Source: Mesorhizobium sp. NZP2077 (GTDB lineage: Bacteria > Pseudomonadota > Alphaproteobacteria > Rhizobiales > Rhizobiaceae). Taken from it: 64,000 bases of DNA. The stretch spans positions 5,958,001-6,022,000 of the forward strand of contig NZ_CP051293.1 in assembly GCF_013170805.1 (NCBI RefSeq). Reading direction: 5' to 3'. The notes beneath the pieces are model-generated. The model was not told the origin of the DNA and ran no database searches. It was given only the letters and a program-made list of their open reading frames with translations. The position numbers and the translations under genes are program-made. This document shows, one piece after another, positions 15,206-46,078 of the stretch (positions are counted from its first letter, which is position 1; each line of letters begins with the position of its first letter).

Positions 15206-15273
15206 GCACAAGACCCGCAACCAGGATTCAATTAGCATGAGCTGAATTAGTTCCGGAAGATTTTAACGAATCG

Positions 15274-16862: not shown

Positions 16863-18596
16863 TTAATCCGAAGCAAACTCGGCCAGTTCGTCAGTGGCCT
16901 CTTGAATACCGTACGCAGCCGCTTGTTCGAGCCAACGGCGACCGGCCACGGGGTTGTGCTCCCCGGCGAGACCTCTGGAGAGATATCGGCCAAGCATGAG
17001 TTGGGCTTGGCCATGCCCAAGCTCAGCTGCGGCGGCGAACCATTTCTGCGCCACCTTCTGGTCGAACGGAAGGCCCTGGCCGGCTTCGCACAGCGCTCCA
17101 AGCGCAAACATCGCACCGGCGTGACCTTCGCCGGCCGCCTGCTCGAACAGTCGCACCGCAGCAGCCGGCGAACTCGCACCTCCGCGCCCGTTGAGCAGCA
17201 TCTCGGCAAGAGCCACCCGCGCGTCGAGCATGCCAGCATCGGCTGCACCGGCAAACCAGACGCGCGCCTGCTGGAGGTCGGCCTCTACGCCGCGCCCATC
17301 CTGAAGCATCCGCGCATACATATATTGTGCCTCCGGCACCCCTTCGGCGGCACGCCTCAGCCAGTGTGCGGCTTGCCCTTCATCCTGCCTGACACCAACG
17401 CCCTTGGCGAAGCACAGCCCGAGATTGAACGCCGCGATAAGGTCGCCCGACGACGCGGCCGCCTCGAACCACTCGGCAACGCCTGTGGTGTCGTCAAGCT
17501 CGCCGGTCCCTCCGAGGAGGAGATTGGCTAGGTCGATCCGCGCTTCCTGGTTGCCGCTGTCTGCGGAAGCGCGCAACCAGCGCCTCCCTTCTTTGTCATC
17601 CTTGGCAACGCCGTTTCCCGTCAGGTAGAGAGAGGCAATTGCGCGAGCGGCGGCCTGGTGACCTGCCTCTGCCGCCCGCAGGTACCAGTTTGCGGCCTCT
17701 GCGTAGTTTGGAGGCCGGTCCTTCACATAATGATCGCCGAGGAGATAGGCCGCTTCGCTGTTACCCGCCAAAGCGGCGCGCCGCATCCAAGCTTCCCCGG
17801 CTGCCGCGTCACGGTCGCCGAGTGCACCGTCGATGAGTGCCAAACCAAGCCGGAACTGGGCCGAGGGAAGACCTTTTTCCGCAGCGGTCTGATACAGTCT
17901 TGCGGCGGCCGCAGGGTCTTTCGACATACCCAGCCCATGCTCGGTTATGACGGCGAGAAGATAGATAGCGGTCGGCAGGCCTGCGTCGGCGGCGCGTCGG
18001 ATCTCGTTGGCAATCCTGCCCCGCTCGGCGGTCCCGCCACGCCGAGCCAGCGAAAGGGCAAGTCCGAGGGATCCTTCAGCACAACCGGCTGCGGCGGACT
18101 GCTCATACCAGTGGTGCGCTGCATCCGCGTCGCGCATCGGTTTGGGACCGCTTGTTAGGATGTAGCCGAGGATTGCCTGGCCGGTTGCCGAACCGGCCTC
18201 GGCGGCTTTTTTTGCAAAGTCGCGCGCTGCCGCGAAGTCCGCCTCGCCCGAGGAATCTCGATCGAACAAGCGCTCCGACCCAAGGCCTTTGCCATCAGCG
18301 TCCGCAGGCACCAACCCTGTCACGTAGAGTGCGGCGAGAAGCGCCTGCGCATCGGCACTCCCGCGGTCGGCTGCCCGCCGCAGCCAGCGCGCTCCCTCCA
18401 TTCGGCTAGACGGCACGCCCGAACCTTCCAGATAGCAACGCGCGACCCGAAATTCCGCGTCGACTATCCCGGCACGCGCGGCGATGGCCATGAGCGGAAA
18501 TGCCTCGGCGTGCTTTCCGATGTCGTAAAGATGGATCGCCCGGCGCAGGGCTGCCGTCGGGTTGACGAGACCGGTCAGCCGATCCAGAATTGTCAT
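16863..18596 (-). CDS. Sel1-repeat (TPR-like) protein in the secretion operon
   Basis: 577 residues made almost entirely of Sel1-like repeats of about 36 residues, around thirteen copies, e.g. AQALLAALYVTG, AQFRLGLALIDG, AAYLLGDHYV, AQYMYARMLQDGRGVEADLQ and AQLMLGRYLSRGL. They form an alpha-solenoid used for protein binding. No signal peptide is seen, so it is probably cytoplasmic. I chose ATG 18596 (MTILDRLTGLVNP) because the residues encoded upstream look non-coding. It lies 46 bp after the HlyD-type gene and is the last gene of the type I secretion operon, so it may present or hold the giant substrate. That role is inference. Confidence 0.85.
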   Translation of the reverse strand: MTILDRLTGLVNPTAALRRAIHLYDIGKHAEAFPLMAIAARAGIVDAEFRVARCYLEGSGVPSSRMEGARWLRRAADRGSADAQALLAALYVTGLVPADADGKGLGSERLFDRDSSGEADFAAARDFAKKAAEAGSATGQAILGYILTSGPKPMRDADAAHHWYEQSAAAGCAEGSLGLALSLARRGGTAERGRIANEIRRAADAGLPTAIYLLAVITEHGLGMSKDPAAAARLYQTAAEKGLPSAQFRLGLALIDGALGDRDAAAGEAWMRRAALAGNSEAAYLLGDHYVKDRPPNYAEAANWYLRAAEAGHQAAARAIASLYLTGNGVAKDDKEGRRWLRASADSGNQEARIDLANLLLGGTGELDDTTGVAEWFEAAASSGDLIAAFNLGLCFAKGVGVRQDEGQAAHWLRRAAEGVPEAQYMYARMLQDGRGVEADLQQARVWFAGAADAGMLDARVALAEMLLNGRGGASSPAAAVRLFEQAAGEGHAGAMFALGALCEAGQGLPFDQKVAQKWFAAAAELGHGQAQLMLGRYLSRGLAGEHNPVAGRRWLEQAAAYGIQEATDELAEFASD

Positions 18597-18642
18597 CGAT
18601 CCAAGCCCCAGATCACTCCGTTTATCGCCTGTTGCGCCGAGC

Positions 18643-20049
18643 CTAAGGCTCTCGCATCGCTTCCTGGCCGATCGGCAGCATGGCCCCAAGAAGGTATTTG
18701 AGCACAGTGCGTCGACCGACCTTGACGTCGGCGGTTACCGGCATGCCGGGACTGACGGCGAAACCCGCTGGAACACCGTGCAGGGCGACCTGGTCGATGG
18801 AAATCTGCGTGCGGTAGAACGGTTCGGCATCGGCGGGCAGCATCGACAAAGAGCTGTTCGGGTCGCGCGCTTGTTCCCGCGCCGAGAACGAATCCGGGCT
18901 AACCGCGCGAACCGTGCCATGGGCGAGGCCGTATTGCGAATAAGGGAAGGTGTCGAACTTGATGACCACGGGGTCACCGACATGCACAAATCCGCTGCTC
19001 CGGCCGACGATGTTTGTCTCGATCTCAAGTTGCGCGTTTGCAGGCACGAGGGTGATCAGCCGATCACCGGACTGCAGGACCGAGCCAACCGAGACCTTGG
19101 CCACCGATTGAACGATGGCGTCTGCTTCGCTTTTCAACTCGACCAACTGCTTGCGCAGTTTTGCTTTGTTGAGGAGTTCGCGCGCATCGGACATCCGCGA
19201 ACTCGCCTCCGACAGGCTCTGCGAGACTTCCGCGCGCCAATTCTGAATGTAGCCGTCGCGTTCGGCGGCCACTGCCGCCTGCTGGAGCTTGGCGGCTTCG
19301 GCGGTCTGCTGGGCATTGCCGAGCGCCCGGGACATTTCCGCGCGATTGTCTTCGGCAAGCAGTGTGTTGAGGCGACTGCCAACCTGCCTTTTTTCGAGCT
19401 GCTTGCGCATGTCTTCGATCGAACCGGCAACAGCGAGCCGCTGACGGTAGCCGTCAGCATCCGACTGCGAGCGTGAGATCACGGACGAGAGTTCGTCGCG
19501 CTGGCGGTCAAAATTCTCAACCTTTGCATCATAGACGGCCTTGCGCCGCTCGAAGATCGACGCCTGCAAGGTCCAGCTTGGGTCAAGACCGTCATAGTTG
19601 AACGCCTGGCCGTCGGCCTCCGCCTTCAACCGTGCGACTTCGGCCTCAAGCGTCGAAACCTGCATCGCCAGGGCCGAGAGATCGGCTGAGGCAAATGTCG
19701 CATCGAGCCGGGCAAGCAACTGTCCAGCCTGCACATGCTGCCCTTCACGAACGTCGATAGAGCGCACGATCGCTGTCTCCAGCGGCTGCACGACGATGTT
19801 GGGCGATTGTGAGACCACGAGCCCTCTGGTCGTCACGACCTGATCGACCGGTATCAGCCCCGCCAGGACGACCAGGACGACCACCAGGCTGGAAATGACC
19901 CAGACGATTCCACGCGCGGCGCGCGGGATCGGCGCGTTCGCAATCGCCGTCGACGGCCACTGGAATTCGAGAATGGCCGGAGACGTTGGATCGCTCGTTT
20001 TCGTCCGGCGCCAGCGGGCGGGACGGATGGTGAGTGAGGTGCTACTCAT
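18643..20049 (-). CDS. Type I secretion membrane-fusion protein, HlyD family
   Basis: 468 residues. A basic cytoplasmic start is followed by one transmembrane helix (GIVWVISSLVVVLVVLAGLI, about residues 45-65). The first biotinyl-lipoyl half (IVVQPLETAIVRSIDVREGQ), a long coiled coil (about 110-310), the second half (VSVGSVLQSGDRLITLVP) and a beta-barrel domain ending GMPVTADVKVGRRTVL follow. This is the periplasmic adaptor joining an inner-membrane ABC exporter to a TolC-type channel. It is 21 bp after the exporter gene. No outer-membrane TolC gene is in the window, so a shared one is probably used. Confidence 0.92.
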   Translation of the reverse strand: MSSTSLTIRPARWRRTKTSDPTSPAILEFQWPSTAIANAPIPRAARGIVWVISSLVVVLVVLAGLIPVDQVVTTRGLVVSQSPNIVVQPLETAIVRSIDVREGQHVQAGQLLARLDATFASADLSALAMQVSTLEAEVARLKAEADGQAFNYDGLDPSWTLQASIFERRKAVYDAKVENFDRQRDELSSVISRSQSDADGYRQRLAVAGSIEDMRKQLEKRQVGSRLNTLLAEDNRAEMSRALGNAQQTAEAAKLQQAAVAAERDGYIQNWRAEVSQSLSEASSRMSDARELLNKAKLRKQLVELKSEADAIVQSVAKVSVGSVLQSGDRLITLVPANAQLEIETNIVGRSSGFVHVGDPVVIKFDTFPYSQYGLAHGTVRAVSPDSFSAREQARDPNSSLSMLPADAEPFYRTQISIDQVALHGVPAGFAVSPGMPVTADVKVGRRTVLKYLLGAMLPIGQEAMREP

Positions 20050-20070
20050 GGGCTGCCGCAGCGATCATGA

Positions 20071-22377
20071 CTAAACCAACCTCGGGGGGACGACAGCCGG
20101 ACGCCCGTTGCGGCCGTCCAGGTGCCTATTCTGCTGCGACCACAGCTGGCGATAGAGCGCGCATCGTTCGAGCAGGACAGGGTGCGGCGCAACGTCGAGC
20201 ACCTTGCCCTGCTCCATGACCAATATCTGGTCGCACTCGGTCAGCGAGGAAAGCCGATGCGAAACGATGATCATCGTTCGCCCGCTGGCAATGCGCATAA
20301 GGTTGGCACTGACCACGGCTTCGCTCTCCGGATCGAGTGCGCTGGTCGCTTCATCGAGGATGAGGATGGTCGGATCATGGATGAGTGCGCGTGCGATCGC
20401 CAGCCGCTGCTTCTGACCGCCCGACAAATTCGGCGAGCCTTCCTCGATGTAGGTGTCATAGCCATTCGGCATCCGCTCGATGAATTCTTCAGCACCAGCG
20501 AGGTGAGCGGCACGCATGGCGTCGGAAAGGGTCAACCCTGCGCGCCCGGCGATGATGTTGTCACGGATCGACCCACGGAACAGGAAGTTATCTTGCAGGA
20601 CCACGCCGAGTCCCTGGCGAAGGTGGCGCAGGTTGATCTCCTTGAGGTCGACGCCATCCAGCTTGAGGAACCCACTGTAATCGCGGTTGATACCCTGCAG
20701 GAGGCGCGCGATGGTCGATTTTCCCGACCCGCTGCGTCCCACAATGCCAAACATGGACCCTGCCGGGATGTCGAAGCTGACCCGGTCAAGGGCCGGTGTC
20801 TTGGTGCCGATATAGCTGAAGGTCAGATCCTTGAAGCTGACCTCGCCAACAAGCTTTGGCCTCAGGCCGATAGAATTCGAGCTACTCTCGAGCGGCCGAT
20901 TGAGGACGGACGCCGCCTCGCCGATCGCCGCACCGACCTCTTCATAATCTTCGACCAGCCGCGCCAGCCCGACCAGCGGCTGGGCGACGCGTTGGGAGAT
21001 CATCATGAAGGCAAACAGGCTACCGACCATATAGCCCGAGCTGTCGTTCATCGCGAGATACGCGCCGATAAGCATGGTGCCGAGCACCATCAATCGTTCG
21101 ATCGGCGTGACCAGGGTCTGCGGCCAGCTGGCGAGTTGCCCGAAGGCGAGACGCGCCCTGCCCGCTTCAGCCACTCGCTCGTCCCAAAGCGCCTTGCGTT
21201 GCGGCTCGAGGCCGAGCGCCTTCACCGTCTTGATGCCGACCACGGTTTCGCCGAGCGCGGCCGACTTCCAGGTCTCGGCGTCGACCACCTGCTGATACCT
21301 GCGACGCAGCGGCTTGAGGAAGGCGAGGATGATCAGGAGGATGACGACCGCGCAGGCAATGACGATCCACGCCAGCGAGGCATTGATGTAGAACATCACC
21401 GGTACCAGGACGCAAAGCGTGATCAGGTCCAGGAACGTGCTCAGCAGTTTTCCGGTCAGGAACTCGCGGATGCGATAGACTTGGGCCAGATGATACATCG
21501 TCTCGCCGGCCGGATGGCGCTCGAAATAGTCGAGCGGCAGGCGCAGCAGCCGACTGAACACGTGCAGTTGCAGCTTGATGTCCAGACGGGCGCCGACGAC
21601 GTTGATGATCATTCGCCGGGCGTGACCGAGCAGCGTCTCGTAGGCGAAGACGACGGCGATGATTGTCGACAGCAGCACCAGCGTCGAGATGCTGTTGAAC
21701 TGCAGCACCTTGTTGACCAGCGTCATGACGATCAGTGGCGGCAAAATGGTAAGAACGCTGAGCGTGAACGAGGCGATGGCGACATCGCGCAGGGGTCGCC
21801 CTTCGACCCGTACCAGTTCGACGAGCCAGCGAAGGCTGAACGGCGCATCCGCCGCGACCTCGGATCGAGCCGAGCGCAACAAGACCGCATCGCCTGTCCA
21901 CACCTGCGACAGTCGTAGCTCGTCGATGGCCGTGGCTTCACCGTCGTCTGGTGCGTCGGCGCTTTTCAGGAAAATGACGTTCCGCTCGGCGCTCGCTCCG
22001 GTCAGGAGAGCCGCACCGCCATCGCTGAACAGCAGGACGACCGGTCCAGTGTCCTGAAAGCGCAAGAGGTGGGACCAGCGAATGTGGAGGGCGCGCGACC
22101 ACATGCCGCCGTTCTGGGCCCACTCGGCGAGGTCGGAAGCGGTTGGAACCGGACTTGCGCTTGACGGCCTGAATTCGTTGGGGTCGAGTTCGACGCCATG
22201 GTAGCGGGCGACACGCACCACCGCCTTGAGGCGTGGCCCTAACTGGTCGAACTCGACGGGGCCGCCGGAGGCCCGCGCCGCCGCGTGGCCGCCGGCCTGA
22301 TCAGTTGCGCCCTCGACTTTGGTGCCGGCGCGGATCGAGACCGGCTGGCTTTCGGCGTTTACGGGGACGTTCACCAT
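20071..22377 (-). CDS. Type I secretion ABC transporter, HlyB type with degenerate peptidase domain
   Basis: 768 residues: an N-terminal C39-peptidase-like domain (about 35-160), a six-helix exporter domain (about 190-460) and a nucleotide-binding domain. The latter has Walker A GRSGSGKST near residue 547, signature NLSGGQKQRLAIARAL near 650, Walker B ILILDEATSALD and switch IVSHRL. I see no Cys-His-Asp triad in the N-terminal domain, so it is a non-cutting CLD that binds unfolded substrate, as in HlyB and LapB relatives. The gene lies between the collagen-like gene (160 bp upstream) and hlyD-like, all on one strand, so the collagen-like proteins are its probable cargo. Confidence 0.92.
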   Translation of the reverse strand: MVNVPVNAESQPVSIRAGTKVEGATDQAGGHAAARASGGPVEFDQLGPRLKAVVRVARYHGVELDPNEFRPSSASPVPTASDLAEWAQNGGMWSRALHIRWSHLLRFQDTGPVVLLFSDGGAALLTGASAERNVIFLKSADAPDDGEATAIDELRLSQVWTGDAVLLRSARSEVAADAPFSLRWLVELVRVEGRPLRDVAIASFTLSVLTILPPLIVMTLVNKVLQFNSISTLVLLSTIIAVVFAYETLLGHARRMIINVVGARLDIKLQLHVFSRLLRLPLDYFERHPAGETMYHLAQVYRIREFLTGKLLSTFLDLITLCVLVPVMFYINASLAWIVIACAVVILLIILAFLKPLRRRYQQVVDAETWKSAALGETVVGIKTVKALGLEPQRKALWDERVAEAGRARLAFGQLASWPQTLVTPIERLMVLGTMLIGAYLAMNDSSGYMVGSLFAFMMISQRVAQPLVGLARLVEDYEEVGAAIGEAASVLNRPLESSSNSIGLRPKLVGEVSFKDLTFSYIGTKTPALDRVSFDIPAGSMFGIVGRSGSGKSTIARLLQGINRDYSGFLKLDGVDLKEINLRHLRQGLGVVLQDNFLFRGSIRDNIIAGRAGLTLSDAMRAAHLAGAEEFIERMPNGYDTYIEEGSPNLSGGQKQRLAIARALIHDPTILILDEATSALDPESEAVVSANLMRIASGRTMIIVSHRLSSLTECDQILVMEQGKVLDVAPHPVLLERCALYRQLWSQQNRHLDGRNGRPAVVPPRLV

Positions 22378-22536
22378 CGACTTCTCATCCGGTACGCAGG
22401 GCGACGGGTCAACAATGGCCAGACTGAGGCGTTTCCCATGCAGTATTGTACTCCGAACTGATCGGCTGCGCGAATCCCGCTTTCCCGCAAAATCTGCGCG
22501 TACGTTGCCATCGGCGGTCTCTCGTCAAATTCCTGT

Positions 22537-31487
<8,951 letters not shown>

Positions 31488-31498
<11 letters not shown>

Positions 31499-32417
31499 GA
31501 GGAGACTCCCAGGCGTTCGTACGGCCCGCCCCGAGTTGAGAAGTCTGTGAGATCATGAAGTCGGCAGGGATAAATTTGCCGAGCTCGTCTAGTCTCCCGG
31601 CCTCGTAGGTTTCACTCTCGCTAGGTACGGCGACTTTGAGCGAAAACCTTGGGATGTTCGCGTGCCCGGGCAACGAAAAGGTAGCTACAACTCTCTTATC
31701 TCTTGAATTGACGACGACATAGGTGACGTTTTCTGCGGGATCGTGAGGCACATCACCAGAAACGATTCGATAAACGTCTGCTAACAGCCCGGCATAAACC
31801 TCCAAGCCTCGGCCAGTCAGCGGCGGTTGCGGTGGCACCCTCCGCGCCCGACCAGCGAACACCCAGCTTCCGCCAAGGGCCGCCGAGCCGACGGGTTTCG
31901 TGGGTGCCCGGACGCCCACGCCCACAGCGTGGGCGAGCCCTTCGACGAAGGCCCGGCCGGCCCGGCCCTGGCCTGCATAACAGCTCCACACTCTGAACTC
32001 GCCGTCCTGGCCCAGCGCCTGGCCGATCGTGGCCAGATCGGCCTCATCGTACTGCAGCGTCCGCGCCGACCATTCGCCGGCCGCGAAGCACACCCGGCCG
32101 GGCGCGCCGTGGGCGATGACGTGCACCGCGTCGAGGCCGTCGCGGCCTTCGAGCGCCAGCGCCATCTGGCGCGCGGCCGGGCGTTCGGCGTCGAGCACGA
32201 TCGCCTCGACCTGCGGTCTCAGGTTTCGCAGGATCGTGCCGAGATCGGATACCGAGGGATCGACGAAAAGGAGTTCGGAAGTGTGTAGCCGGGGCGCACC
32301 GATCCGCGCATTCGGGCGATCAATTGCAGCGTTCGGCAGCGAATGAATTTGGCGCCTATCGAACCGGGGCACAACGCCCCCACGGGGCACACGCGACAAC
32401 ACTTGATCCAAAGCCAC
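31488..32417 (-). CDS. DUF4347 protein with small beta domain and no collagen stalk
   Basis: 309 residues. After about 45 variable residues comes a DUF4347 domain ([48 protein letters not shown]). A PPQPPLTGRGLEVYAG link and a C-terminal beta domain (NVTYVVVNSRDKRVVATFSL ... FSLKVAVPS) follow. The same domain pair opens both collagen-like proteins. No signal peptide and no obvious C-terminal secretion tail are seen. It is the first gene of the unit, and its end overlaps the giant gene by 11 bp, so the two are translationally coupled. It may cap, process or chaperone the collagen-like protein; this is inference. Confidence 0.8.
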
Positions 32418-33014
32418 CCACTCCCATCACCCGTGCCACCGACGTCTCGACGGCAAACTCGCGAGTGAACTCCGAAATGGGAAAGTCTGCCTTCCGCCGA
32501 AGGACAGACACAGACGCAGCGCCTCACGGCGCGCCTTATAGACGCACCTTCTTCATCCGCGAAATTGCCTTGCTACCCAGATCCCAGCCCAACTCGCCTG
32601 CACAGACCTTACGGCCACCGACCGTACGATCCGCGGGCACCCTCCATACCCACATATTAGTAAATTCGAAAATTAGCGATTTGTAAACTATTAAGTAGGG
32701 AATTGGTAAATTGACAAGAACGAGACAGCAGACCTCGGTCAATATTGAGGCGCCGGACTCGCGCAAATTGTTTTTGAAAATCGAAGACTTGGCGGCTTCC
32801 TTTCGGTTGCTGTCAATCCTGCGGATGGTCGCCACGGCCGCGCCAGCCGCGGAGCTGCTGAAACGCCATTTGACGGCCGACCATGTCGGCGGCGCCGTGG
32901 GACGGCTGCCCGAGCCAACAAGGAAGAATGATCAGCGCGCGGGTTCCGCCCTCCAGCGAAGCCCGCGCGCCCGTTTTCAACCTGGACAGGTCACCGTCCA
33001 GGTCCACTCGCCGC
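32418..33014. other. Intergenic promoter region of the second collagen unit
   Basis: About 600 bp between the start of the DUF4347 gene and the end of the intact collagen-like gene. Its part 32430-32715 is similar to 38330-38640, upstream of the other unit, including the AT-rich repeats. Bases 32740-33000 have frames open on both strands (for example a plus-strand frame starting at 32711), but none has clear support. Confidence 0.45.
32660..32711 (-). promoter_or_regulatory. Three GTAAA repeats at 23-bp spacing, upstream of the DUF4347/collagen unit
   Basis: On the plus strand, AGTAAATT (G at 32660), TTGTAAACT (G at 32683) and GGTAAATT (G at 32706) recur exactly 23 bp apart in a strongly AT-rich patch within GC-rich DNA. 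The same triple arrangement occurs at 38567-38618 before the other unit. Likely regulator-binding iterons or an overlapping promoter for the minus-strand genes. Confidence 0.55.
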
Positions 33015-37613
<4,599 letters not shown>

Positions 37614-37674
37614 TCAGTTCAAGCGGAATCCGCCCACCGGCCGGTGAGCGCTGGGGACAAAGGCTTGAGAGGCG

Positions 37675-37989
37675 TCATCTTCCGGCCGGCCCGACAGCAC
37701 CGTCGGGACGTTCTACGGCGGGGCTCTCGACGCGGAGGAAGCTGCAGGCCTGGAAAGTCCCGCCATCGTCAAACGTGCCAATCGCAAATGAACCTGCCGC
37801 GGCGGGAACCTTGACGGTGACAGCGACGGCGAGGCTTCGCTTGACGGCCTTGGGAAGAATGACCTGACCGACGATGGCGCTCTTGGCCGTGTCCAGGATA
37901 AAATAAGGCACATTTTCGGTCGTGTCGCCGACGGGCAAGACGCCTCTAACGGCAACTTCCATGACCGCAAACCCTGTTATGTAGCTCAT
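37675..37989 (-). CDS. Stand-alone small beta-domain protein of the collagen cluster
   Basis: 104 residues: ITGFAVMEVAVRGVLPVGD, VPYFILDTAKSAIVGQVILP, LAVAVTVKVPAAAGSFAIG. It lines up with the beta domains that follow DUF4347 in the three neighbouring proteins (start of strand V-x-G, then Y-x-V/L-x-D, then V-x-x-x-x-LP, then V-x-V-x-VP). Here the domain is encoded alone, from ATG 37989 with AAGGAGG 7 bases upstream. It lies 85 bp before the intact collagen-like gene and just after a broken DUF4347 remnant, so it may be what survives of a DUF4347 plus beta-domain gene. Function unknown; possibly structural or capping. Confidence 0.7.
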   Translation of the reverse strand: MSYITGFAVMEVAVRGVLPVGDTTENVPYFILDTAKSAIVGQVILPKAVKRSLAVAVTVKVPAAAGSFAIGTFDDGGTFQACSFLRVESPAVERPDGAVGPAGR

Positions 37990-38066
37990 CTTATCCTCCT
38001 TGGTCCGCGGTCACTGTGCCGCGCCGTCAATTTCCATTTGCCGCGGAATGTCCGCCGCCCGACTGG

Positions 38067-38321
38067 TCAGCGCATCCGGTGTTCGAAGTGCGTGGCATCG
38101 AGCATGATCGCCTCGGACTCCGGCCTCCCGTTTCGGAAGATCGTGCCGAGATCGGATATCGAGGATCGGTGAAATAGAGTTCGGAAGGCGGGACCGAGGC
38201 CGCCGGTCAGCCAATTCGGCCGATCGGTTATCACGACGCCTAGCCGCGATGTTCCGGGGAGACCACCCAGACCGGGGTCTGCACGATCCTTACGATACGC
38301 ATGCGATACTACTCGATTCAC
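38067..38321 (-). pseudogene. Broken DUF4347 gene remnant
   Basis: The minus strand encodes a variable start (MNRVVSHAYRKD), then ITDRPNWLTG and RTLFHRSSISDLGTIFRNGR with ESEAIMLDA. These match the first 75 residues of the protein at 31488-32417 ([50 protein letters not shown]). The frame then breaks, and the rest of DUF4347, including HG and SC, is missing. The beta domain persists downstream as the gene at 37675-37989. Confidence 0.65.
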
Positions 38322-38566
38322 AACCCACTCCCGTTACCGTGACGCTAACGCCTCGCCTGCAACTCTCGGGGGATGGGAAGCCGTCCGCCTCGCAAGGGGG
38401 CATGGACAAGACATATCGCGGGCGCGCCCGTGGACGCACCTTACAATCTGTGGAACGGCCTTGATAACCCAGACCCTGCTAACCCAACTCCCTGAGAGAG
38501 AGACCTTCGCAGAAATTCAGGCGAGCGGCCGTCCAATCCGCGGGCGCCCCTCAACACCGAATTTTA

Positions 38567-38618
38567 GTAAATTATAAAATTAGCAAGTTGTAAACTATTA
38601 ATTAAGCATATTCTAAAT
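38567..38618 (-). promoter_or_regulatory. Three GTAAA-type repeats at 23-bp spacing, upstream of the first collagen unit
   Basis: AGTAAATT (G at 38567), TTGTAAACT (G at 38590) and TCTAAATT (C at 38613) recur at exactly 23 bp, the same array as at 32660-32711. Flanking bases (AAAATTAGC, CTATTAA) are also shared. This points to common regulation of both minus-strand units. Confidence 0.55.
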
Positions 38619-39117
38619 TAGCGACCAACAGGGTATCGACGCGCAAGCGAGACCAGCGGGCAAGATGGGAAAAATAGGTCTGAAAATCCGTAGCTTAACG
38701 ACATTAATTCAAATGCTGTCAGCTTCATGCTGTAGTTGAAGGTGTTCGTCGTCCATGCTGGCTTGCAAGCACTGATGCTTGCAGGGATGCCAGCCAGGCC
38801 GGGACGCCACGTCCGCGGATGTGGCTGTCCAAACCTTGACGGCAGCTGGCAAATGGCGGCGAAGTATGAAGTATACGGCGTAGGCCGGTTGGGCTGGACG
38901 AAGGAGTGAGTGCAGGCAGTTGCAGTTCGGCGAGAACCTTCGCGGTAATCGTTGCCTCTAGCGTAGGCGCGACTGGCGACTTCTAACCACGATGGATAAG
39001 GTTAAGCGCGGTTTCCAGAGGACGACGCTGCACGAACGTGAGAAGGAATAATCGGACTTTAGGAATTTAAGCTGTTACGGCGGCCGGACCGGCAAAAGGG
39101 TGGCGACTGCGGGGGAA
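38619..39117. other. Intergenic region between the collagen cluster and the glycosyltransferase cluster
   Basis: About 500 bp between divergent transcription units, so it should hold the glycosyltransferase promoter. Apart from the hairpin at 38757-38793 and a short AT-rich start I see no gene. Confidence 0.4.
38757..38793 (+). repeat. Stable stem-loop in the divergent promoter region
   Basis: Inner stem GCAAGCA (38765-38771) and TGCTTGC (38776-38782) with loop CTGA, extended by outer arms TGGC and GCCA. No T run follows. It could be part of a 5' leader or an operator. Confidence 0.4.
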
Positions 39118-39222
39118 ATGCATGAGCGATCGAAGCCTGGCAAATCCGCTCGGCCGGACGGATTGCACGAATTCTCATTCGACGATTTCGAGCAGGCGCG
39201 CAACGCAGCGCCGCTCAGTTGA
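39118..39222 (+). CDS. Short open frame just before the glycosyltransferase
   Basis: 34 residues from ATG 39118: a basic start (MHERSKPGKSARPDG) and an amphipathic end (LHEFSFDDFEQARNAAPLS). The stop is 9 bp before the glycosyltransferase ATG, with the ribosome site GAAGGA starting inside the stop codon. It could be a coupled small protein or a leader. No family recognised. Confidence 0.4.
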   Translation: MHERSKPGKSARPDGLHEFSFDDFEQARNAAPLS

Positions 39223-39231
39223 AGGAATAGC

Positions 39232-42036
39232 ATGAGCACCATCGGCCTATGCATGATCGTCAAGAACGAGGCGAAGGTTATCCTGCAATGCCTCGCCAGC
39301 GCACTTCCCCTCGTCGACTACGTGCTCGTAGTCGACACGGGTTCCGAGGACGGCACGCAAGACCTAATCCGCGGATTCCTCGCCGATCACAATGTCCAAG
39401 GCGCTGTCATCGACGAGCCGTGGCGGGACTTCGCGTACAACCGTACCTTCGCCCTTGAAAGATTGCGTGAGGTCGAGACTGTCGACTATGCAATGATTAT
39501 CGATGCGGACGATGTTCTGATCCGGGACGTTGACTTCGATCCGATCGGGTTCAAGTCGCAGATGGAACACGATTTGTACGACATCGAGGTGTTACATGGT
39601 GGCATTTCGTTTTATCGCCCACAGATCTGCCGCAACCGGCTGCCGTTCGCCTTCAAGGGCGTTCTGCACGAATATCTCGAGGCCCCTCCTGGCCATCTCA
39701 CGCGGGAGACCGCCAAGGGTTTTCGCGTGGCGACGGGGCGTGGCGGAGCACGCAGTCAAAACCCGCGAAAGTACCAAGACGACGCCGCCGTGCTAGAAAA
39801 CGAGCTTGCCACGGAGACCGACCCCTTCTTACTTTCGCGATACACCTTCTATTTGGCGCAAAGCTACAAAGATTCCGGCGAGCGTGAAAAATCGCTGGCG
39901 AACTATCTGAAGCGCGCCGAGCTGGGTTTTTGGGAGGAGGAGGTCTATGTCAGCCTTCTCGAGGCGGGCAACCTGATGGCAGCGCTGGGACGGCCATTCG
40001 ACCAGGTCGTTGCCGTCTTTGAGCGCGCGGTGCAGGTCGTTCCCGGCCGCGCGGAGGCTCTTCACGCCGCAAGTCTCTATTGCCGCAATCAGGGCCGGAA
40101 TGCGGAAGGAACGGAATTTGCGCGTCGAGGGCTCGACCTTGTTCAACCCGCCGGACTTTTCATTCAGCCCTGGGTCTATGACTACGGACTGCTCGATGAG
40201 TTTGCGGTCAATGCGTACTGGACCGGCGCTTACAGGGAATCGCTTGACGCCTGCCTGAAACTGCTCGCCAACGACAAATTGCCGGCGGACATGGCGAAGC
40301 GTGTGGTGGCCAACGCGCGCTTCGCCACCGATAAGCTCCCGGTCAATGAGTCTCCGAAACTTGGATCGTTCGGGACAGAGAGCTTGATCGACCAGCACAA
40401 GCTTGTCCGGCAGCGTTCCTTGCGGTCGCGTATGGAGGGCACGCCGCGCATCCTGGTGGCAATCCTGGCCAAGCAGAAAGAGCCGGCACTGCCGCTTTAC
40501 CTTGAGTGTATCGAGGCGCTCGACTACCCGAAGGCGTCGATCGTCCTGTATATCCGGACAAACAACAACACCGACAGGACCGAGCACATATTGCGCGAAT
40601 GGGTGGAGCGCGTTGGTCACCTCTATGCCGCGGTTGAGTTCGATGGTTCCGACGTGGCTGATAGGGTCGAGCGATTTGGCGAGCACGAATGGAACGAGAC
40701 GCGCTTCAGGGTGCTTGGCCGAATCCGCAACATAAGTTTGCGGAAAACTCTCCAACACAGCTGCGATTTCTATTTCGTTGTCGACGTCGACAATTTCGTG
40801 CGACCGGCCACGCTGCGGGAACTCGTCGCGCTCGACGTGCCGATCGTCGCTCCCCTGCTTCGCTCCATCTCGCCCGGTCAATACTATTCGAACTACCACG
40901 CCGAGGTCGATGCGAACGGATATTATCAACAATGCGATCAATATGGCTGGGTGCTCAACCGCCATGTGCGCGGTATTATCGAGATGCCGCTCGTACACTG
41001 CACCTATCTCGTCCGCGCCGACGTGCTGACCGAACTGACATACGAGGACGCCACATCGCGGTATGAGTACGTTGTTTTTGCCGATAGCGCCCGCAAGGCC
41101 GGCGTCGTCCAGTATATGGATAACCGACAAGTATATGGCTACATCACCTTTGGCGATGGCCAATATTATGTGAGTGATGGGATCGAGCGCGCCCGAGCGC
41201 TGTTGCGTGGCGCGGGCGATACCCCGGTATTCACTGTCGCCACGCCCCCGGGCTCCCTACCGATGTCAGATCGACCTGTCGAGCCGAAGGATTCGCCGAA
41301 AATACACCTGATAAACCTCGACCGCAGTGTAGAGCGCTGGAGCATGTATCAAAGCAATAACTGGCATCTAATGCACAATACGGTTCGTGTATCGGCCGTT
41401 GACGGCACTTCTCTCGACAGGGAGGCGCTCATCAAGGAAGGGCTGATTACCAGTGATTGTCCGTATCCCCCGGGTACGTTGGGATGCGCTCTATCGCATA
41501 TCAACTTGTGGAAGCTGTCGGCGTCAGAGAACAAGGCGATAACTATTTTTGAAGACGACGTTCGAACATCGTTTCGATTTACAGAGGAATCCGCCAATAT
41601 TGTCTCTCAAGCACCTGCGGACTGGGACTTGATACAGTGGGGATATATATTTGACCCATTATTTCTCTGGTTGGATTTTGGCTTCTCCAAAGCCAAGCTG
41701 GAGTTTTACGATCGTCGGTATATGAATAAATCTACATTGTTTCAGGCCGAGAAATTTTCTCGATCCCTCATCAAGGTAGAGCACTCATTTGGGACTCAGG
41801 CTTACACAGTCACACCAAGAGGCGCGCGAATACTTCTGGAAAAATGTCTGCCGCTACGAAGCAGACTGATCCCCTTTCCCGGCACTGCTGTCATCCTCGA
41901 TGACACGGGTATCGATTGCGCGATGTGTGCGGCATATGGCTCAATGCAAGCTTTCCTTTGCATGCCACCACTCGTCATTCACGATACCGAACTACCGTCA
42001 GACCGGACAGACGCGGATCACCGAGAGCCGAGCTAG
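39232..42036 (+). CDS. Three-domain glycosyltransferase: GT2, collagen-galactosyltransferase-like, GT25
   Basis: 934 residues, ATG 39232 after GAAGGA. (1) About 1-200, GT2: MSTIGLCMIVKNEAKVILQC, VDTGSEDGT, IDADD. (2) About 200-330, TPR-like helices. (3) About 404-680, a second transferase domain: ILAKQKEPALPLYLECIEAL, a DxD-type VVDVDNF near 516, VAPLLRS, NGYYQQ and MPLVHCTYLV. (4) About 691-920, GT25: IHLINLDRSVERW, GCALSHINLWK, TIFEDDV, DWDLIQWG and TQAYTVTPRGARILL. Domains 3 and 4 in this order match, from memory, human COLGALT1 and the PLOD glycosyltransferase region, which add galactose or glucose to collagen hydroxylysine. Beside genes for collagen-like Gly-X-Thr proteins, glycosylation of that stalk is a strong inference; lipopolysaccharide sugar transfer is the alternative. 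Confidence 0.85.
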   Translation: MSTIGLCMIVKNEAKVILQCLASALPLVDYVLVVDTGSEDGTQDLIRGFLADHNVQGAVIDEPWRDFAYNRTFALERLREVETVDYAMIIDADDVLIRDVDFDPIGFKSQMEHDLYDIEVLHGGISFYRPQICRNRLPFAFKGVLHEYLEAPPGHLTRETAKGFRVATGRGGARSQNPRKYQDDAAVLENELATETDPFLLSRYTFYLAQSYKDSGEREKSLANYLKRAELGFWEEEVYVSLLEAGNLMAALGRPFDQVVAVFERAVQVVPGRAEALHAASLYCRNQGRNAEGTEFARRGLDLVQPAGLFIQPWVYDYGLLDEFAVNAYWTGAYRESLDACLKLLANDKLPADMAKRVVANARFATDKLPVNESPKLGSFGTESLIDQHKLVRQRSLRSRMEGTPRILVAILAKQKEPALPLYLECIEALDYPKASIVLYIRTNNNTDRTEHILREWVERVGHLYAAVEFDGSDVADRVERFGEHEWNETRFRVLGRIRNISLRKTLQHSCDFYFVVDVDNFVRPATLRELVALDVPIVAPLLRSISPGQYYSNYHAEVDANGYYQQCDQYGWVLNRHVRGIIEMPLVHCTYLVRADVLTELTYEDATSRYEYVVFADSARKAGVVQYMDNRQVYGYITFGDGQYYVSDGIERARALLRGAGDTPVFTVATPPGSLPMSDRPVEPKDSPKIHLINLDRSVERWSMYQSNNWHLMHNTVRVSAVDGTSLDREALIKEGLITSDCPYPPGTLGCALSHINLWKLSASENKAITIFEDDVRTSFRFTEESANIVSQAPADWDLIQWGYIFDPLFLWLDFGFSKAKLEFYDRRYMNKSTLFQAEKFSRSLIKVEHSFGTQAYTVTPRGARILLEKCLPLRSRLIPFPGTAVILDDTGIDCAMCAAYGSMQAFLCMPPLVIHDTELPSDRTDADHREPS

Positions 42037-42042
42037 TTTGTC

Positions 42043-42168
42043 ATGGAAGCACAACAGGCCGCCATGGCTCGACGCGCGCATGCGAGGGAAGATGAAGATA
42101 CTGGCAAAGCCGCCTACGGGCGTTGGAGTCTTGATGCTCTCGAGCGCCAATGTCGACGCGACGAGTAA
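42043..42168 (+). CDS. Possible short open frame after the glycosyltransferase
   Basis: 41 residues, charged and helical (MARRAHAREDEDTGKAAYGR, then WSLDALERQCRRDE). It begins 6 bp after the glycosyltransferase stop without a clear ribosome site. Possibly a relic of a longer gene. Another frame of 37 residues at 42184-42297 lies next to it. Confidence 0.25.
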   Translation: MEAQQAAMARRAHAREDEDTGKAAYGRWSLDALERQCRRDE

Positions 42169-42313
42169 CATGAGGTGCATTCGATGACGCAAAGGACGCC
42201 CGATGATTCCCGCGAAGCCTTCGGGCGCCTCGTCACGGGACCGCCGGCGCCACGTCCCTTCATCGGCAAAAATCGAGGCCGAAGACCGCCGCCGTGATAT
42301 CGGAGAATCGTCA

Positions 42314-43090
42314 ATGTTTAAGAACTCGGACGACATTCAGATACTAACTGTCCCGCGTGAACCAAGGCGGTACTTGATTCTGATACGCGCCGGCTCCAAG
42401 CGCCGTCCCTCCTTGTTTTCTGAGCCTCTGAGTGAGCGCCGGGAGTACGATGTGGGGATAAACTACTATGCAGACCCGCACCCAGATGACGCTTTTCGCA
42501 CCGGAGCCGAGCTCATTTTTGGCGGCGGTCTTTCAAAGATGCATGGCGCCAAACGGCTATTCGAGGCGACGGGATTGCACAATATCTATGAAGGAGTTTT
42601 TTTTCTGGACGATGACATTGAAGTTCTATTCGATCCCGATGATTTTTTCAAACTTTGCGAAGAATATTCACTGGATATCGCACAACCGTCTCTTACCTCT
42701 GACAGTTTCTGTGTCATCCCGCTTACGCGTCATCACCCCGGTCTAATATTACGGACGACAAATTGGGTCGAGGTGATGGCCCCATTCTTCAGACGTGACT
42801 TTCTGCGGGAGATGCTCCATTCGTTTGATTTGTCAATTTCGGGATGGGGACTCGATATATATTGGGGTCACCACCTGAAAGAGCGTTGGCGCGCAGGCAT
42901 CGTTGACAATTTCCTCATCCGACATGCGAACGAATGCAAACCGGATTCAGGACCGTTTTACGACTATCTTAAAGGTATTGGCGTTAATCCAAGTAATGAT
43001 ATGAAGACTATTCTTACTATAATTGATACAAATCCATATGTTGTCAGACCGATGCAATTTGTTTATCATACGTACTTTTTCCGAGCATAG
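42314..43090 (+). CDS. DUF707 family protein, probable glycosyltransferase-like
   Basis: 258 residues. The DUF707 pattern is visible: RRYLILIRAGSKR, a central FFLDDDIEVLFD (acidic DDD, transferase-like), AQPSLTSDS, WVEVMAPFFRRDFL and SGWGLDIYWGHHL. The family is annotated as unknown, but its DDD motif and genomic company suggest sugar transfer. I chose ATG 42314, which has GGAGA 8 bases upstream; the frame continues upstream through unlikely sequence. Lower GC than its surroundings suggests a different origin. It probably works with the glycosyltransferase before it. Confidence 0.8.
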   Translation: MFKNSDDIQILTVPREPRRYLILIRAGSKRRPSLFSEPLSERREYDVGINYYADPHPDDAFRTGAELIFGGGLSKMHGAKRLFEATGLHNIYEGVFFLDDDIEVLFDPDDFFKLCEEYSLDIAQPSLTSDSFCVIPLTRHHPGLILRTTNWVEVMAPFFRRDFLREMLHSFDLSISGWGLDIYWGHHLKERWRAGIVDNFLIRHANECKPDSGPFYDYLKGIGVNPSNDMKTILTIIDTNPYVVRPMQFVYHTYFFRA

Positions 43091-43670
43091 TGAGGTGGTC
43101 TCGGATTCTTAGACAAAGGCCTAATCTTACTCAGTCAGAAAAATCGGAGGCTTCGCGCCCGGAGCCGATGTTATAATACTGATGGTTCACGAGCGGCGAC
43201 GGACATTTGCTAATCGGACATCTACTAAGATGTTGTTGAGTTAGTGCCATGTAGGTTTTCTCGCTCAGGCATGGCACTGAAGGCGAGGGTGGCCAGGCCA
43301 TGATGACGATATCTGAACCATTTCCAGTCTGCTTTTGGCCGGCACGTTATACGGAGGCGCTCCCATAGATTGGTCAGGCGAGATTTATGGCGCTAAAACG
43401 AGAATGCTTGGTGGGATTGGCCAGCGATTTCGGATCTAGGTTACCATTTCTGCGCAGAGGCCATTACCGGCGCACTCGGCTGAGGACGTGGCCGTGGCTG
43501 GTTTGATGGTCGAAGCGTCAACGGCGGCCCCCATCGCCGTCTCTGCAATCGATGCCTCGACTGTCTTTCAGTCGACACCGGCTCTTGTCGCTCCGGCGGT
43601 TTGCAGTTAAGATACCATAGTTAACACCGCGGTCGACTGTTCATTTTTAGATTGAAAATGAGAACCTAGG
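43091..43670. other. Intergenic stretch, possible relic
   Basis: About 580 bp without a full gene. The minus strand between 43215 and 43385 encodes RLTNLWERLRITCRPKADWK followed by WFRYRHHG and a stop, which may be part of an old gene, but I cannot name the family. Confidence 0.35.
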
Positions 43671-44435
43671 TTGGATATTGATAATTCAAGTACGAATGAC
43701 GACGCTGATCATTCAGCCGCTATTTGCGGTGAGAATTATTCCACGTTTCTCAACACTCTCCATCTATGCCTTAAACCGAAGACGTACTTCGAGATTGGCA
43801 CGCTTAGCGGCGGGACACTTCGATTGGCCAATGGCGCCAGCATAGCGGTCGACCCCCAATTCCAGATCGATGCCGACATAATGGGTGTAAAACCGAGTTG
43901 TATGCTATTTCAGCAATCTAGCGACGAGTTTTTCGCGACCCACAACGCCTCTCAATTGTTCGGCGCTCCAATCGATCTAGCGTTCCTTGATGGAATGCAT
44001 CTTTTCGAATTCCTGCTCCGCGATTTTATGAACACAGAAAAGCATTGCCGCAAGAATTCGATCATCCTTCTTCACGATTGCCTTCCTCCGGGGTTCTTTA
44101 TGACCGTTAGAGATCGCTCTGACCCTACGTGGGCCAAATCGCGCTTTGCACGATGGTGGACAGGAGATGTATGGAAGGTCATTCCCGTCCTTCGGAGTTA
44201 CCGCCCCGATCTGTCCATAACGATGTTCGACTGCCCGCCGACAGGGCTCGTTTCCATCACTAATCTCGACCCGGCTAGCCAAGCGCTTGACAGTGCATAT
44301 GTCGAGATTGTTGATCGCTTTTCCTCAAAAGATATCGATCGAGAGGCTTACGACAACTACTGGACGACTCTATCTATTGAGAAGAGCAGAGAATTCTCCA
44401 CAGCTCAGCATTTTGCGACGAAGTTTTGGATTTGA
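43671..44435 (+). CDS. Class I SAM-dependent methyltransferase-like protein
   Basis: 254 residues from TTG 43671. YFEIGTLSGGTLRLANGASI is a glycine-rich motif I (E-I-G-x-x-x-G), followed by AVDPQF as the acidic end of strand 2. IDLAFLDGMHLFEFLLRDFM and SIILLHDCLPPG match the DGxH and DC motifs of the Methyltransf_24 type found in polysaccharide and glycopeptide clusters. It lies in an AT-richer segment between a DUF707 protein and an acetyltransferase. Likely O-methylation of a sugar; target unknown. Confidence 0.75.
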   Translation: MDIDNSSTNDDADHSAAICGENYSTFLNTLHLCLKPKTYFEIGTLSGGTLRLANGASIAVDPQFQIDADIMGVKPSCMLFQQSSDEFFATHNASQLFGAPIDLAFLDGMHLFEFLLRDFMNTEKHCRKNSIILLHDCLPPGFFMTVRDRSDPTWAKSRFARWWTGDVWKVIPVLRSYRPDLSITMFDCPPTGLVSITNLDPASQALDSAYVEIVDRFSSKDIDREAYDNYWTTLSIEKSREFSTAQHFATKFWI

Positions 44436-44487
44436 TCCAGTTCGACCCGGGAGCAGCCCTCGGTCCGCGTTCCAGGAGTCGAAATAG

Positions 44488-45069
44488 ATGCCTCAGGTCA
44501 TTCCAATCTTCACTCGATCTGCGTTGGAAGGCAGAGGTTTTGACATTGGAGAATATAGCTATGGAGTTCCTACCGTCAGATGGTGGGGTGAAAGAGCATC
44601 GTTGAAGATCGGAAGATTTTGTTCTATCTCAGACGGCGTTGAAATATTTCTTGGAGGGAACCACCGCTCAGATTGGATAACAACTTATCCTTTTTCCGCC
44701 ATCGCCCACTGGCCCGAGGCCGAAAATATATCCGGACACCCATCGACCAGGGGCGATGTCATTATCGGAAATGACGTTTGGATCGCGAGCCATGCCATGA
44801 TCCATTCCGGTGTAAGGATCGGGGACGGAGCCGTCATAGGGGCAGGCAGCGTAGTCCGGCGTGATGTTCCGCCATACGCACTCGTTGCGGGAAATCCCGC
44901 GGAGACTGTGCGACTTCGTTTTTCCGAGAGGGAGGTCGCAACTCTACTCAAGATTCGCTGGTGGGATTGGGAGGAAGAACGAATCCGTGAGACCCTTCCC
45001 TTTCTCTTATCAGGAAATATTTCGCTGTTCTTCGATGCGTGCGGCATCCCAAAGGAGCTTGTTTCTTAG
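44488..45069 (+). CDS. CatB/XAT-type hexapeptide acetyltransferase
   Basis: 193 residues. Left-handed beta-helix repeats are evident (IGRFCSISDGVEIFLGGNHR, VIIGNDVWIASHAMIHSGVR, IGDGAVIGAGSVVRRDVPPY, LVAGNPAE). The catalytic histidine of xenobiotic acetyltransferases is in GGNHR. The C-terminal helix pair (LLKIRWWDWEEERI) is typical of the CatB/Vat group. The gene is 52 bp after the methyltransferase with AGGAG upstream. It probably O- or N-acetylates a glycan or nucleotide sugar. Confidence 0.9.
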   Translation: MPQVIPIFTRSALEGRGFDIGEYSYGVPTVRWWGERASLKIGRFCSISDGVEIFLGGNHRSDWITTYPFSAIAHWPEAENISGHPSTRGDVIIGNDVWIASHAMIHSGVRIGDGAVIGAGSVVRRDVPPYALVAGNPAETVRLRFSEREVATLLKIRWWDWEEERIRETLPFLLSGNISLFFDACGIPKELVS

Positions 45070-45115
45070 ACTGCTTCGCTAGCAAGCCCGCGGTTCATCA
45101 GTTGCTGCGTTCCCG

Positions 45116-46078
45116 ATGACCTCCGGCTATATCTCGAGAGATGTTTGGACAGAGGAGCATCAGCTGACGAACAGACGAAAGTTCAGCATACTTGCTTCCG
45201 TCTCATTGGCTGCCAGCTTCGCGCCAGCTATGCTGTGGAGTCACTCGCGGAAAACCTACGCAGCCATGTCTCCCAAATCTCCTTCGGTCCGCCAATCGCC
45301 AACCCTCCTCACCGCGCCCATCGAGCTTGCCGGCGACTGGGGCCGCATGCTTGAGGGCGCGGCTGATCAGGTCGTTGAGCGGATGCGGCATGCCTGCCTC
45401 GATGGCGTCCGGCTGCTCTCCGACCGCCAGCCGACGCGGCTGCGCGTCGACGAGCACACTTCCGGCTCGCCGGCCGTGTGGCTGCACCCTGATGGCAGCA
45501 GCATGGCGTGGATCATCGTCGACATCGGTGAGCGGGACTGGTCGAAGCTTGCCTATCAGTTCGGCCACGAGCTCGGCCATGTCCTTTGCAACAGCTGGCA
45601 GCCGGACGCCAAACCGGCGCCGCCCTGCCAATGGCTCGAGGAAGCCATCGTGGAGGCACACTCGCTGCGCGGGCTCGGGCGCCTGGCAAAAAGCTGGAAG
45701 GAGGCCCCGCCCTTCGCCGGCGATAACGCCTTCGGCGATGCCATCGCCCGGTATCGCCAGGACATCATCGACCACTATGCGGCTCTCGCTGAAAGCCAGG
45801 GACTCACCCGCAACGCCGTAGCGTGGTTCGCCGACTACCGCGACGAGGTCGAGAAGCTTGCCCTCAATCCGTTCGCCCAGGCGATGTCGGTGACTATCCT
45901 GGCCGAATACGACCGCGAGCCGGACTGCGTCGAGGCGCTGGGCGCACTCAATCGCTGGCCCGGCCGTACCGGTCTCCCGATCAACGAGTATCTGCAGCAA
46001 TGGGAGACAAGTTGTGGCGAACTGCAAGCCTCGCCCCGACTGCCAGTCCGCCTGCGCCAGCTGTTGGGGATCACTTGA
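45116..46078 (+). CDS. Tat-exported HExxH putative metalloprotein
   Basis: 320 residues. NRRKFSILASVSLAASFAPA (about residues 19-38) is a twin-arginine signal. The mature part carries YQFGHELGHVLCNSW, an HExxH zinc motif at residues 151-155, and WLEEAIVEAHSL about 20 residues later, where the glutamates could supply the third ligand, as in gluzincin peptidases. The C-terminal half is helical. It lies among glycan genes, so it may process an exported protein or a cell-wall component. No peptidase family could be named. Confidence 0.65.
   Translation: MTSGYISRDVWTEEHQLTNRRKFSILASVSLAASFAPAMLWSHSRKTYAAMSPKSPSVRQSPTLLTAPIELAGDWGRMLEGAADQVVERMRHACLDGVRLLSDRQPTRLRVDEHTSGSPAVWLHPDGSSMAWIIVDIGERDWSKLAYQFGHELGHVLCNSWQPDAKPAPPCQWLEEAIVEAHSLRGLGRLAKSWKEAPPFAGDNAFGDAIARYRQDIIDHYAALAESQGLTRNAVAWFADYRDEVEKLALNPFAQAMSVTILAEYDREPDCVEALGALNRWPGRTGLPINEYLQQWETSCGELQASPRLPVRLRQLLGIT

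What the first reader, a model, noticed from the sequence alone, without database searches (positions are those of the whole stretch)
18643..42036. A complete-looking bacterial collagen-like glycoprotein system: structural genes, type I exporter and a collagen-galactosyltransferase-like enzyme
Seen: two giant Gly-X-Thr repeat proteins, a type I exporter with degenerate C39 domain and HlyD adaptor directly downstream, and on the other side a 934-residue glycosyltransferase. Known: GT25 enzymes include procollagen galactosyltransferase COLGALT1 and the lysyl-hydroxylase GT region, which pair two transferase domains in the order found here (residues 404-680, then 691-920). Bacillus BclA shows that Thr in collagen-like GXT repeats can be glycosylated. 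Inference: this cluster makes, glycosylates and exports a bacterial collagen-like glycoprotein; the combination of DUF4347, GXT stalk, T1SS and COLGALT-like GT is not one I know as described.
Basis: partly seen in the sequence, partly recalled or inferred. Interest (0 to 1): 0.93.

Follow-up and report, generated by a model that had tools for sequence, protein, structure and literature searches.

The report
Swappable sugar-coating island for bacterial collagen
Soil bacteria of the Mesorhizobium group carry a gene cluster that appears to make giant collagen-like proteins, coat them with sugars using enzymes that include a relative of the human collagen galactosyltransferase, and export them, with the sugar-adding genes differing from strain to strain.

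Summary
The cluster is real and larger than reported (about 16.9-46.1 kb). The 934-aa enzyme has a GT2+TPR front part, then both domains of human COLGALT1 in the same order (404-882 against 24-494, E about 1e-41), keeping COLGALT's DxD, EDD and DWD motifs. In 146 genus genomes the GT, the collagen C-terminal domain and a gluzincin-like peptidase (45116-46078) occur in exactly the same 52. In 50 of 52 loci a Gly-X-Thr array lies on the opposite strand, median 2.5 kb away; in the other two the contig ends. Between GT and peptidase lie strain-variable glycosyltransferases and methyltransferases. The COLGALT-like pair is one alternative (15 of 52); the shared enzyme part is GT2-TPR, related to GmaR and SunS. 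Best reading: a polymorphic collagen-glycosylation and type I export island. Corrections: collagen gene 1 is frame-broken here; LH3 matches only through its accessory domain. Against: one genome outside the genus has collagen and peptidase but no GT match. Glycosylation itself is untested.

The parts
39232..42036 (+). 934-aa modular glycosyltransferase: GT2 + TPR (1-390), COLGALT-N-like (404-660), GT25/COLGALT-C-like (690-925)
   Evidence: Pfam; COLGALT1 404-882, E 1.1e-41; motifs DADD 91, DVD 518, EDD 774, DWD 797
33015..37589 (-). collagen-like gene 2: DUF4347, 366 Gly-X-Y triplets, conserved C-terminal domain
22537..31498 (-). collagen-like gene 1: DUF4347 start (31498-30749) and 849 triplets (30636-22996) in different frames; broken at the run 30763-30771
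31488..32417 (-). repeat-less DUF4347 protein, overlapping the start of gene 1
20071..22377 (-). type I secretion ABC exporter, HlyB-like, no Pfam C39 match
18643..20049 (-). HlyD periplasmic adaptor
16863..18689 (-). Sel1-repeat protein; next to HlyD also in L039, L047, L061 and outside the genus in L051, L052, L056, L060 (ORF as listed; an internal ATG is the likelier start)
42203..43090 (+). DUF707 protein of the variable part
   Evidence: relatives in L022, L029, L036
43671..44435 (+). methyltransferase (Methyltransf_24) of the variable part
44488..45069 (+). hexapeptide acyltransferase-like protein of the variable part
45116..46078 (+). putative exported HExxH metallopeptidase (twin-arginine-like start, HELGH 151-155, Glu 175/176)

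Best explanation
A dedicated production line for a glycosylated bacterial collagen. In the cytoplasm the collagen-like proteins are sugar-modified on the threonines of their Gly-X-Thr repeats. The GT2-TPR part, shared by all 52 genus loci, most likely adds the first sugar, its TPR gripping the repeat protein. Exchangeable modules (here the COLGALT-like pair, a DUF707 protein, a methyltransferase and an acyltransferase) extend and decorate the glycan. The product leaves through the adjoining HlyB/HlyD type I exporter. DUF4347 (caspase-like fold, invariant His and Cys) and the exported HExxH peptidase probably trim or release it. Swapped modules would give each strain its own collagen coat, and Thr-linked sugars may stabilise the triple helix in place of hydroxyproline. 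Shown by computation: domain identities, gene order, co-inheritance, variability of the modules. Inferred: Thr as the site, order of transfer, export of the modified form, processing, coat function.
For: COLGALT1 match over both domains, motifs kept: DxD in 117 of 117, EDD in 44 of 44, DWD in 32 of 42 relatives whose alignment covers the site. Same 52 of 146 genomes hold GT, collagen C-terminal domain and peptidase. Gly-X-Thr array on the opposite strand in 50 of 52 loci, DUF4347 near in 51. Shared GT2 part closest to GmaR (2.1e-19) and SunS (8.6e-13) among solved transferases, which I recall as protein and peptide glycosyltransferases. Variable middle rich in GT and methyltransferase families. 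Outside the genus the COLGALT-N domain lies by collagen-like genes in 5 of 6 genomes. Thr nearly invariant at Y, Pro nearly absent. 0 of 159 island proteins has more than 2 hydrophobic segments.
Against: No biochemistry. The 146 genomes are related, so the Fisher value (7.5e-41) overstates independence. G217 has collagen, exporter, Sel1 and peptidase but no GT2-TPR match at E <= 1e-10 (90 contigs). G278 has a second COLGALT-N copy with no collagen-like ORF in the 20 kb read (L058). Two Methylobacterium loci with a GT relative show no Gly-X-Thr in the DNA held. The COLGALT-like pair is in only 15 of 52 loci. RMQV, needed in human COLGALT, is absent. Here collagen gene 1 is frame-broken.
Confidence: 0.72

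Rival explanations
1. The transferase genes are a capsule, exopolysaccharide or lipopolysaccharide locus that merely sits beside the collagen genes.
For: Mixed GT1/GT4, GT25 and methyltransferase content and strain-to-strain variability are typical of such loci; GT25 and FkbM families are known from LPS and EPS genes (recalled).
Against: No multi-span protein that could be a flippase or polymerase among 159 island proteins of 36 loci (a crude hydropathy count that finds 4 spans in the ABC controls). No polysaccharide polymerase, flippase or initiating-transferase family among the 30 proteins scanned (9 of the 30 had no Pfam hit). Exact co-occurrence with the collagen in 146 genomes.
Confidence: 0.12
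2. The COLGALT-like enzyme belongs to the cluster but glycosylates another protein (for example the repeat-less DUF4347 protein) or only elongates a glycan, and the repeats stay bare.
For: Thr is common at Y in bacterial collagens in general (PMC8968730, passages). No Lys or hydroxylysine acceptor exists in the repeats.
Against: The collagen repeats are the one large constant feature of the loci, with nearly invariant Thr. All three COLGALT motifs are kept.
Confidence: 0.11
3. The variable genes make a small decorated molecule that is exported by the same cluster.
For: The type C first enzyme has a stretch like demethylmacrocin O-methyltransferase (8ia9, 2.1e-17); a TylF-family gene in L011.
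Against: No small-molecule biosynthesis core in the 30 proteins scanned; the collagen is the constant partner.
Confidence: 0.03

Closest known systems
Animal procollagen galactosyltransferase COLGALT1 (GLT25D1)
   Same: Two domains in the same order, E about 1e-41; DxD, EDD, DWD at similar spacing: 256 and 23 residues against 269 and 26; works beside collagen genes.
   Different: GT2-TPR fused in front; no RMQV; acceptor cannot be hydroxylysine in these repeats; bacterial cytoplasm, not ER.
LH3/PLOD3
   Same: Its accessory domain matches residues 403-638.
   Different: No match to its transferase or hydroxylase domains.
Serine-rich-repeat adhesin loci (Fap1/GspB/PsrP type; recalled)
   Same: Long repeat protein, locus-encoded and variable glycosyltransferases, dedicated exporter in the same locus.
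   Different: Collagen Gly-X-Thr repeats, ABC/HlyD exporter, COLGALT-like and GT2-TPR enzymes, DUF4347 and a peptidase.
Bacillus BclA exosporium collagen (PMC8968730, passages)
   Same: Bacterial collagen-like protein known to be glycosylated.
   Different: No DUF4347, no type I exporter and no COLGALT-like enzyme that I know of (recalled).
GmaR and SunS (GT2 protein/peptide glycosyltransferases; function recalled)
   Same: Nearest solved transferases to the shared GT2 part.
   Different: Other substrates and other fusion partners.

Membership tests
COLGALT-type collagen galactosyltransferase | N-domain then GT25 C-domain in one chain | tested here: met
   404-882 against COLGALT1 24-494, E 1.1e-41
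COLGALT-type collagen galactosyltransferase | essential DxD in the N-domain | tested here: met
   DVD at 518; DxD in 117 of 117 relatives covering the site
COLGALT-type collagen galactosyltransferase | EDD core and second DxD in the C-domain | tested here: met
   EDD 774 (44 of 44 relatives), DWD 797 (32 of 42)
COLGALT-type collagen galactosyltransferase | RMQV stretch after the second DxD | tested here: not met
   absent from the translation; role from PMC3244457 (passages)
COLGALT-type collagen galactosyltransferase | hydroxylysine acceptor in collagen repeats | tested here: not met
   no Lys in 849 + 366 triplets
COLGALT-type collagen galactosyltransferase | UDP-galactose donor, activity on collagen | not testable with these tools
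   needs enzyme assay
Bacterial collagen-like protein | long uninterrupted Gly-X-Y repeats | tested here: met
   849 and 366 triplets; PF01391 1.4e-154 for gene 2
Bacterial collagen-like protein | triple helix | not testable with these tools
   needs circular dichroism or structure
Type I secretion system | ABC exporter and HlyD adaptor side by side | tested here: met
   same pair beside the collagen in relatives such as L016-L018, L039, L047, L061
Type I secretion system | outer-membrane channel (TolC type) | not tested
   not searched for in the genome
Gluzincin metallopeptidase (45116-46078) | HExxH plus downstream Glu on the next helix | tested here: met
   invariant in 36 sequences; helices 142-157 and 172-196
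Gluzincin metallopeptidase (45116-46078) | gluzincin fold | tested here: inconclusive
Clan CD cysteine peptidase fold (DUF4347) | caspase-like fold with His-Cys pair | tested here: inconclusive
Serine-rich-repeat adhesin glycosylation locus | serine-rich repeats with an accessory Sec exporter | tested here: not met
   repeats are Gly-X-Thr and the adjoining exporter is ABC/HlyD

The most novel reading that the evidence does not exclude
Bacteria have a full collagen-glycosylation pathway whose COLGALT-like enzyme shares its two-domain ancestry with animal COLGALT. Thr-linked glycans replace hydroxyproline in holding the triple helix, and exchange of transferase modules gives each rhizobial strain a serotype-like collagen coat, finished by a dedicated gluzincin and a self-cleaving caspase-like domain.
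Probability: 0.3. Interest if true: 0.93.

Novelty: new variant of a known kind. Interest (0 to 1): 0.82.

Why it matters
If true, collagen glycosylation by COLGALT-like enzymes is not confined to animals and their viruses, and its evolution can be studied in bacteria. A Pro-poor Gly-Ala-Thr repeat that depends on O-glycans would be a clean test of sugar-stabilised triple helices (compare galactosylated Thr in Riftia collagen, PMC10141479, one passage) and a source of glycosylated collagen materials. The exchanged modules are a natural library of glycosyltransferases acting on one scaffold, and a possible strain-recognition surface in legume symbionts. It also offers candidate functions for DUF4347 and for an uncharacterised peptidase family.

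Tried and rejected
Rejected or weakened: (a) Capsule/LPS locus: no protein with more than 2 hydrophobic segments among 159 island proteins of 36 loci (proteins under 130 aa and 16 other loci were not in this count). (b) Plain lipooligosaccharide GT25: COLGALT1 is the better match even for the GT25 part alone, by a modest margin. (c) COLGALT-like pair as the universal enzyme: 15 of 52 loci only. (d) Module swapping as proven: on a peptidase tree of 52 rows (49 genus rows, 3 outgroup rows; 3 genus loci had no usable peptidase row in the stretch read) the four labels need at least 8 changes (least possible 3, shuffled mean 20.7), but starred branches force no more than one change per label: suggested, not forced. 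(e) Phase variation of collagen gene 1: its 9-base run is the longest G/C run in the window and 0 of 53 relative junctions has a G/C run of 7 or more or an A/T run of 8 or more; sequencing slip, mutation and local switch cannot be told apart.

Led nowhere: no PDB sequence relative of the peptidase; class-wide search with the COLGALT-N domain found only the window's own genome in 385; 9 of 30 scanned proteins had no Pfam hit. The structure of the 934-aa GT was not predicted: both jobs went to the peptidase and DUF4347. One search stopped with an error after printing its motif counts; its repeat statistics were redone.

Literature: (open-licence PubMed Central only) listed no paper whose title or abstract start describes this cluster; (Mesorhizobium, collagen-like protein, glycosyltransferase) found 0 papers. 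Passages only were read from PMC13382579, PMC8968730, PMC3244457, PMC8262886, PMC10141479 and PMC11012932.
Full report
What is there. On the minus strand, from 37589 down to 16863, lie collagen-like gene 2, a repeat-less DUF4347 gene, collagen-like gene 1, an HlyB-type exporter, an HlyD adaptor and a Sel1-repeat gene. Facing away, on the plus strand from 39232 to 46078, lie the 934-aa transferase, a DUF707 protein, a methyltransferase, a hexapeptide acyltransferase-like protein and a putative peptidase. The repeats have Thr at 843 of 849 and 360 of 366 Y positions, mostly Ala or Ser at X, no Lys and 5 Pro each. Collagen gene 1 is out of frame between its DUF4347 start and its repeats at a 9-base run; loci L014 and L020 have such a gene in one frame.

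The enzyme. Residues 404-882 align with human COLGALT1 24-494 at E about 1e-41 across both domains; LH3 matches only at 403-638, its accessory domain. GT25 alone finds COLGALT1 at 2.3e-8 and bacterial GT25 structures at 0.0038. In human GLT25D1 the DxD motifs at 166-168 and 461-463 are essential, and bacterial GT25 enzymes lack the first (PMC3244457, passages); a later paper names EDD 435-437 as the metal core and the C-domain as the catalytic one (PMC13382579, passages). The window's enzyme has DVD at 518, EDD at 774 and DWD at 797, at similar spacing, but no RMQV stretch. Of the 119 database relatives listed that were compared, 42 cover both domains; DxD is kept in 117 of 117, EDD in 44 of 44 and DWD in 32 of 42 whose alignment covers the site.

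The front part. Residues 1-390 are GT2 plus TPR. A profile of 12 such parts, from all three locus types of the genus and two other genera, finds GmaR (2.1e-19) and SunS (8.6e-13) as the nearest solved transferases (their roles as protein and peptide glycosyltransferases are recalled). This part, not the COLGALT-like pair, is what the 52 genus loci share, in two subtypes 30-32% identical in the alignment.

Co-inheritance. In 146 genus genomes the GT (E <= 1e-20), the collagen C-terminal domain (E <= 1e-5) and the peptidase (E <= 1e-15) each occur in 52, and the three sets are the same (Fisher 7.5e-41). The genomes share ancestry, so the number overstates independence. PF01391 alone matches 99 of 146. 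I read the collagen loci of 5 of the 48 genomes that have a PF01391 match but no GT: their collagens are Pro- or charge-rich and no such cluster is beside them (L072-L076).

Gene order. All 52 loci were read (51 fetched, plus the window). A Gly-X-Thr array lies on the opposite strand in 50, at 2080-5092 bp (median 2468); DUF4347 lies near in 51, at 807-1948 bp. The exceptions, L012 and L063, are contig ends (L063 still shows DUF4347). The peptidase closes the island on the GT's strand in all 36 loci tabulated. It was in the stretch first read for 50 of 52 loci and was found on another contig (L080) or just beyond the stretch (L081) for the last two. Outside the genus it can face the GT instead (L051).

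Variable middle. From first GT to peptidase, 159 proteins of 36 loci form 42 clusters. Of 30 proteins scanned, hits include GT1/GT4, GT2, GT25, GT8, GT11, Gly_transf_sug, FkbM, TylF and other methyltransferases and F5/8 domains; some of these are below the family cut-off, and 9 of 30 have no hit. By first enzyme, 15 loci carry the COLGALT-like pair or part of it (L021 lacks GT25 in the chain; frame breaks in L020 and L022), 6 the same front part with another rear, and 31 the distant front part in a protein of 1244-1316 aa (699 in L061). On the peptidase tree the labels need at least 8 changes, but strongly supported branches do not force this.

Beyond the genus. The COLGALT-N-like domain was found in the window's genome and 6 others of 297 sampled in the order, 64-70% identical, and in no other of 385 sampled in the class. 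In 5 of the 6 it lies about 0.15-6.5 kb from a collagen-like gene. In the sixth (G332) the contig ends, but exporter, Sel1 and peptidase are there, and another contig pairs a GT2-TPR gene with a collagen match. Against this: G278 has a second copy with no collagen-like ORF in the 20 kb read (L058), and G217 has collagen, exporter, Sel1 and peptidase but no GT2-TPR match, with no transferase among the 6 ORFs of its left flank scanned. Two Methylobacterium loci with a GT relative show no Gly-X-Thr in the DNA held.

How it most likely works. GT2-TPR starts glycans on Gly-X-Thr threonines in the cytoplasm, exchangeable modules extend and decorate them, HlyB/HlyD export the chain, and the peptidases finish it. 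The rival of a neighbouring polysaccharide locus lacks a recognisable flippase or polymerase. No step has been shown biochemically. It works like serine-rich-repeat adhesin loci (recalled), with collagen as the scaffold and a COLGALT-like enzyme as one option.

Novelty. The literature searches named under Tried and rejected listed no description of it. I rate it a new variant of a known kind, dedicated glycosylation-export loci, with an unusually close bacterial counterpart of an animal collagen enzyme.

Noticed in passing
window 30763-30771: A 9-base G/C run, the longest in the window, sits exactly at the frame break of collagen gene 1; 53 relative junctions have no such run. Sequencing slip, mutation or switch undecided.
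   Followed up: partly
window 37590-39231: A gene-poor stretch of about 1.6 kb separates the diverging collagen and GT genes; a similar gap (DUF4347 to GT 807-1948 bp) is kept in 51 of 52 loci. It may hold a shared control region.
   Followed up: no
window 37065-37589 and other DUF4347 copies: DUF4347 has an invariant His and Cys and a predicted caspase-like fold closest to the T6SS protein Tce1; it also heads other large repeat proteins.
   Followed up: partly
L040:8613-12446: The type C first enzyme joins GT2-TPR, a Gly_transf_sug-like stretch and a stretch like demethylmacrocin O-methyltransferase in one chain.
   Followed up: partly
L022 (G017): A near copy of the window's whole island with the GT and several neighbours split by frame breaks, perhaps assembly errors.
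   Followed up: no
L054:1792-2634: A collagen-like gene with Glu, Lys and Ala besides Thr (GETGAKGDTG...) directly upstream of a COLGALT-N enzyme: one relative whose repeats do contain Lys.
   Followed up: no
L079:5825-6808: A TIR/CAP12-type protein lies between a UvrA-like and an Hsp70-like gene close to the peptidase in G217.
   Followed up: no
window 14348-15238: An ATP-dependent DNA ligase domain protein lies outside the cluster.
   Followed up: no
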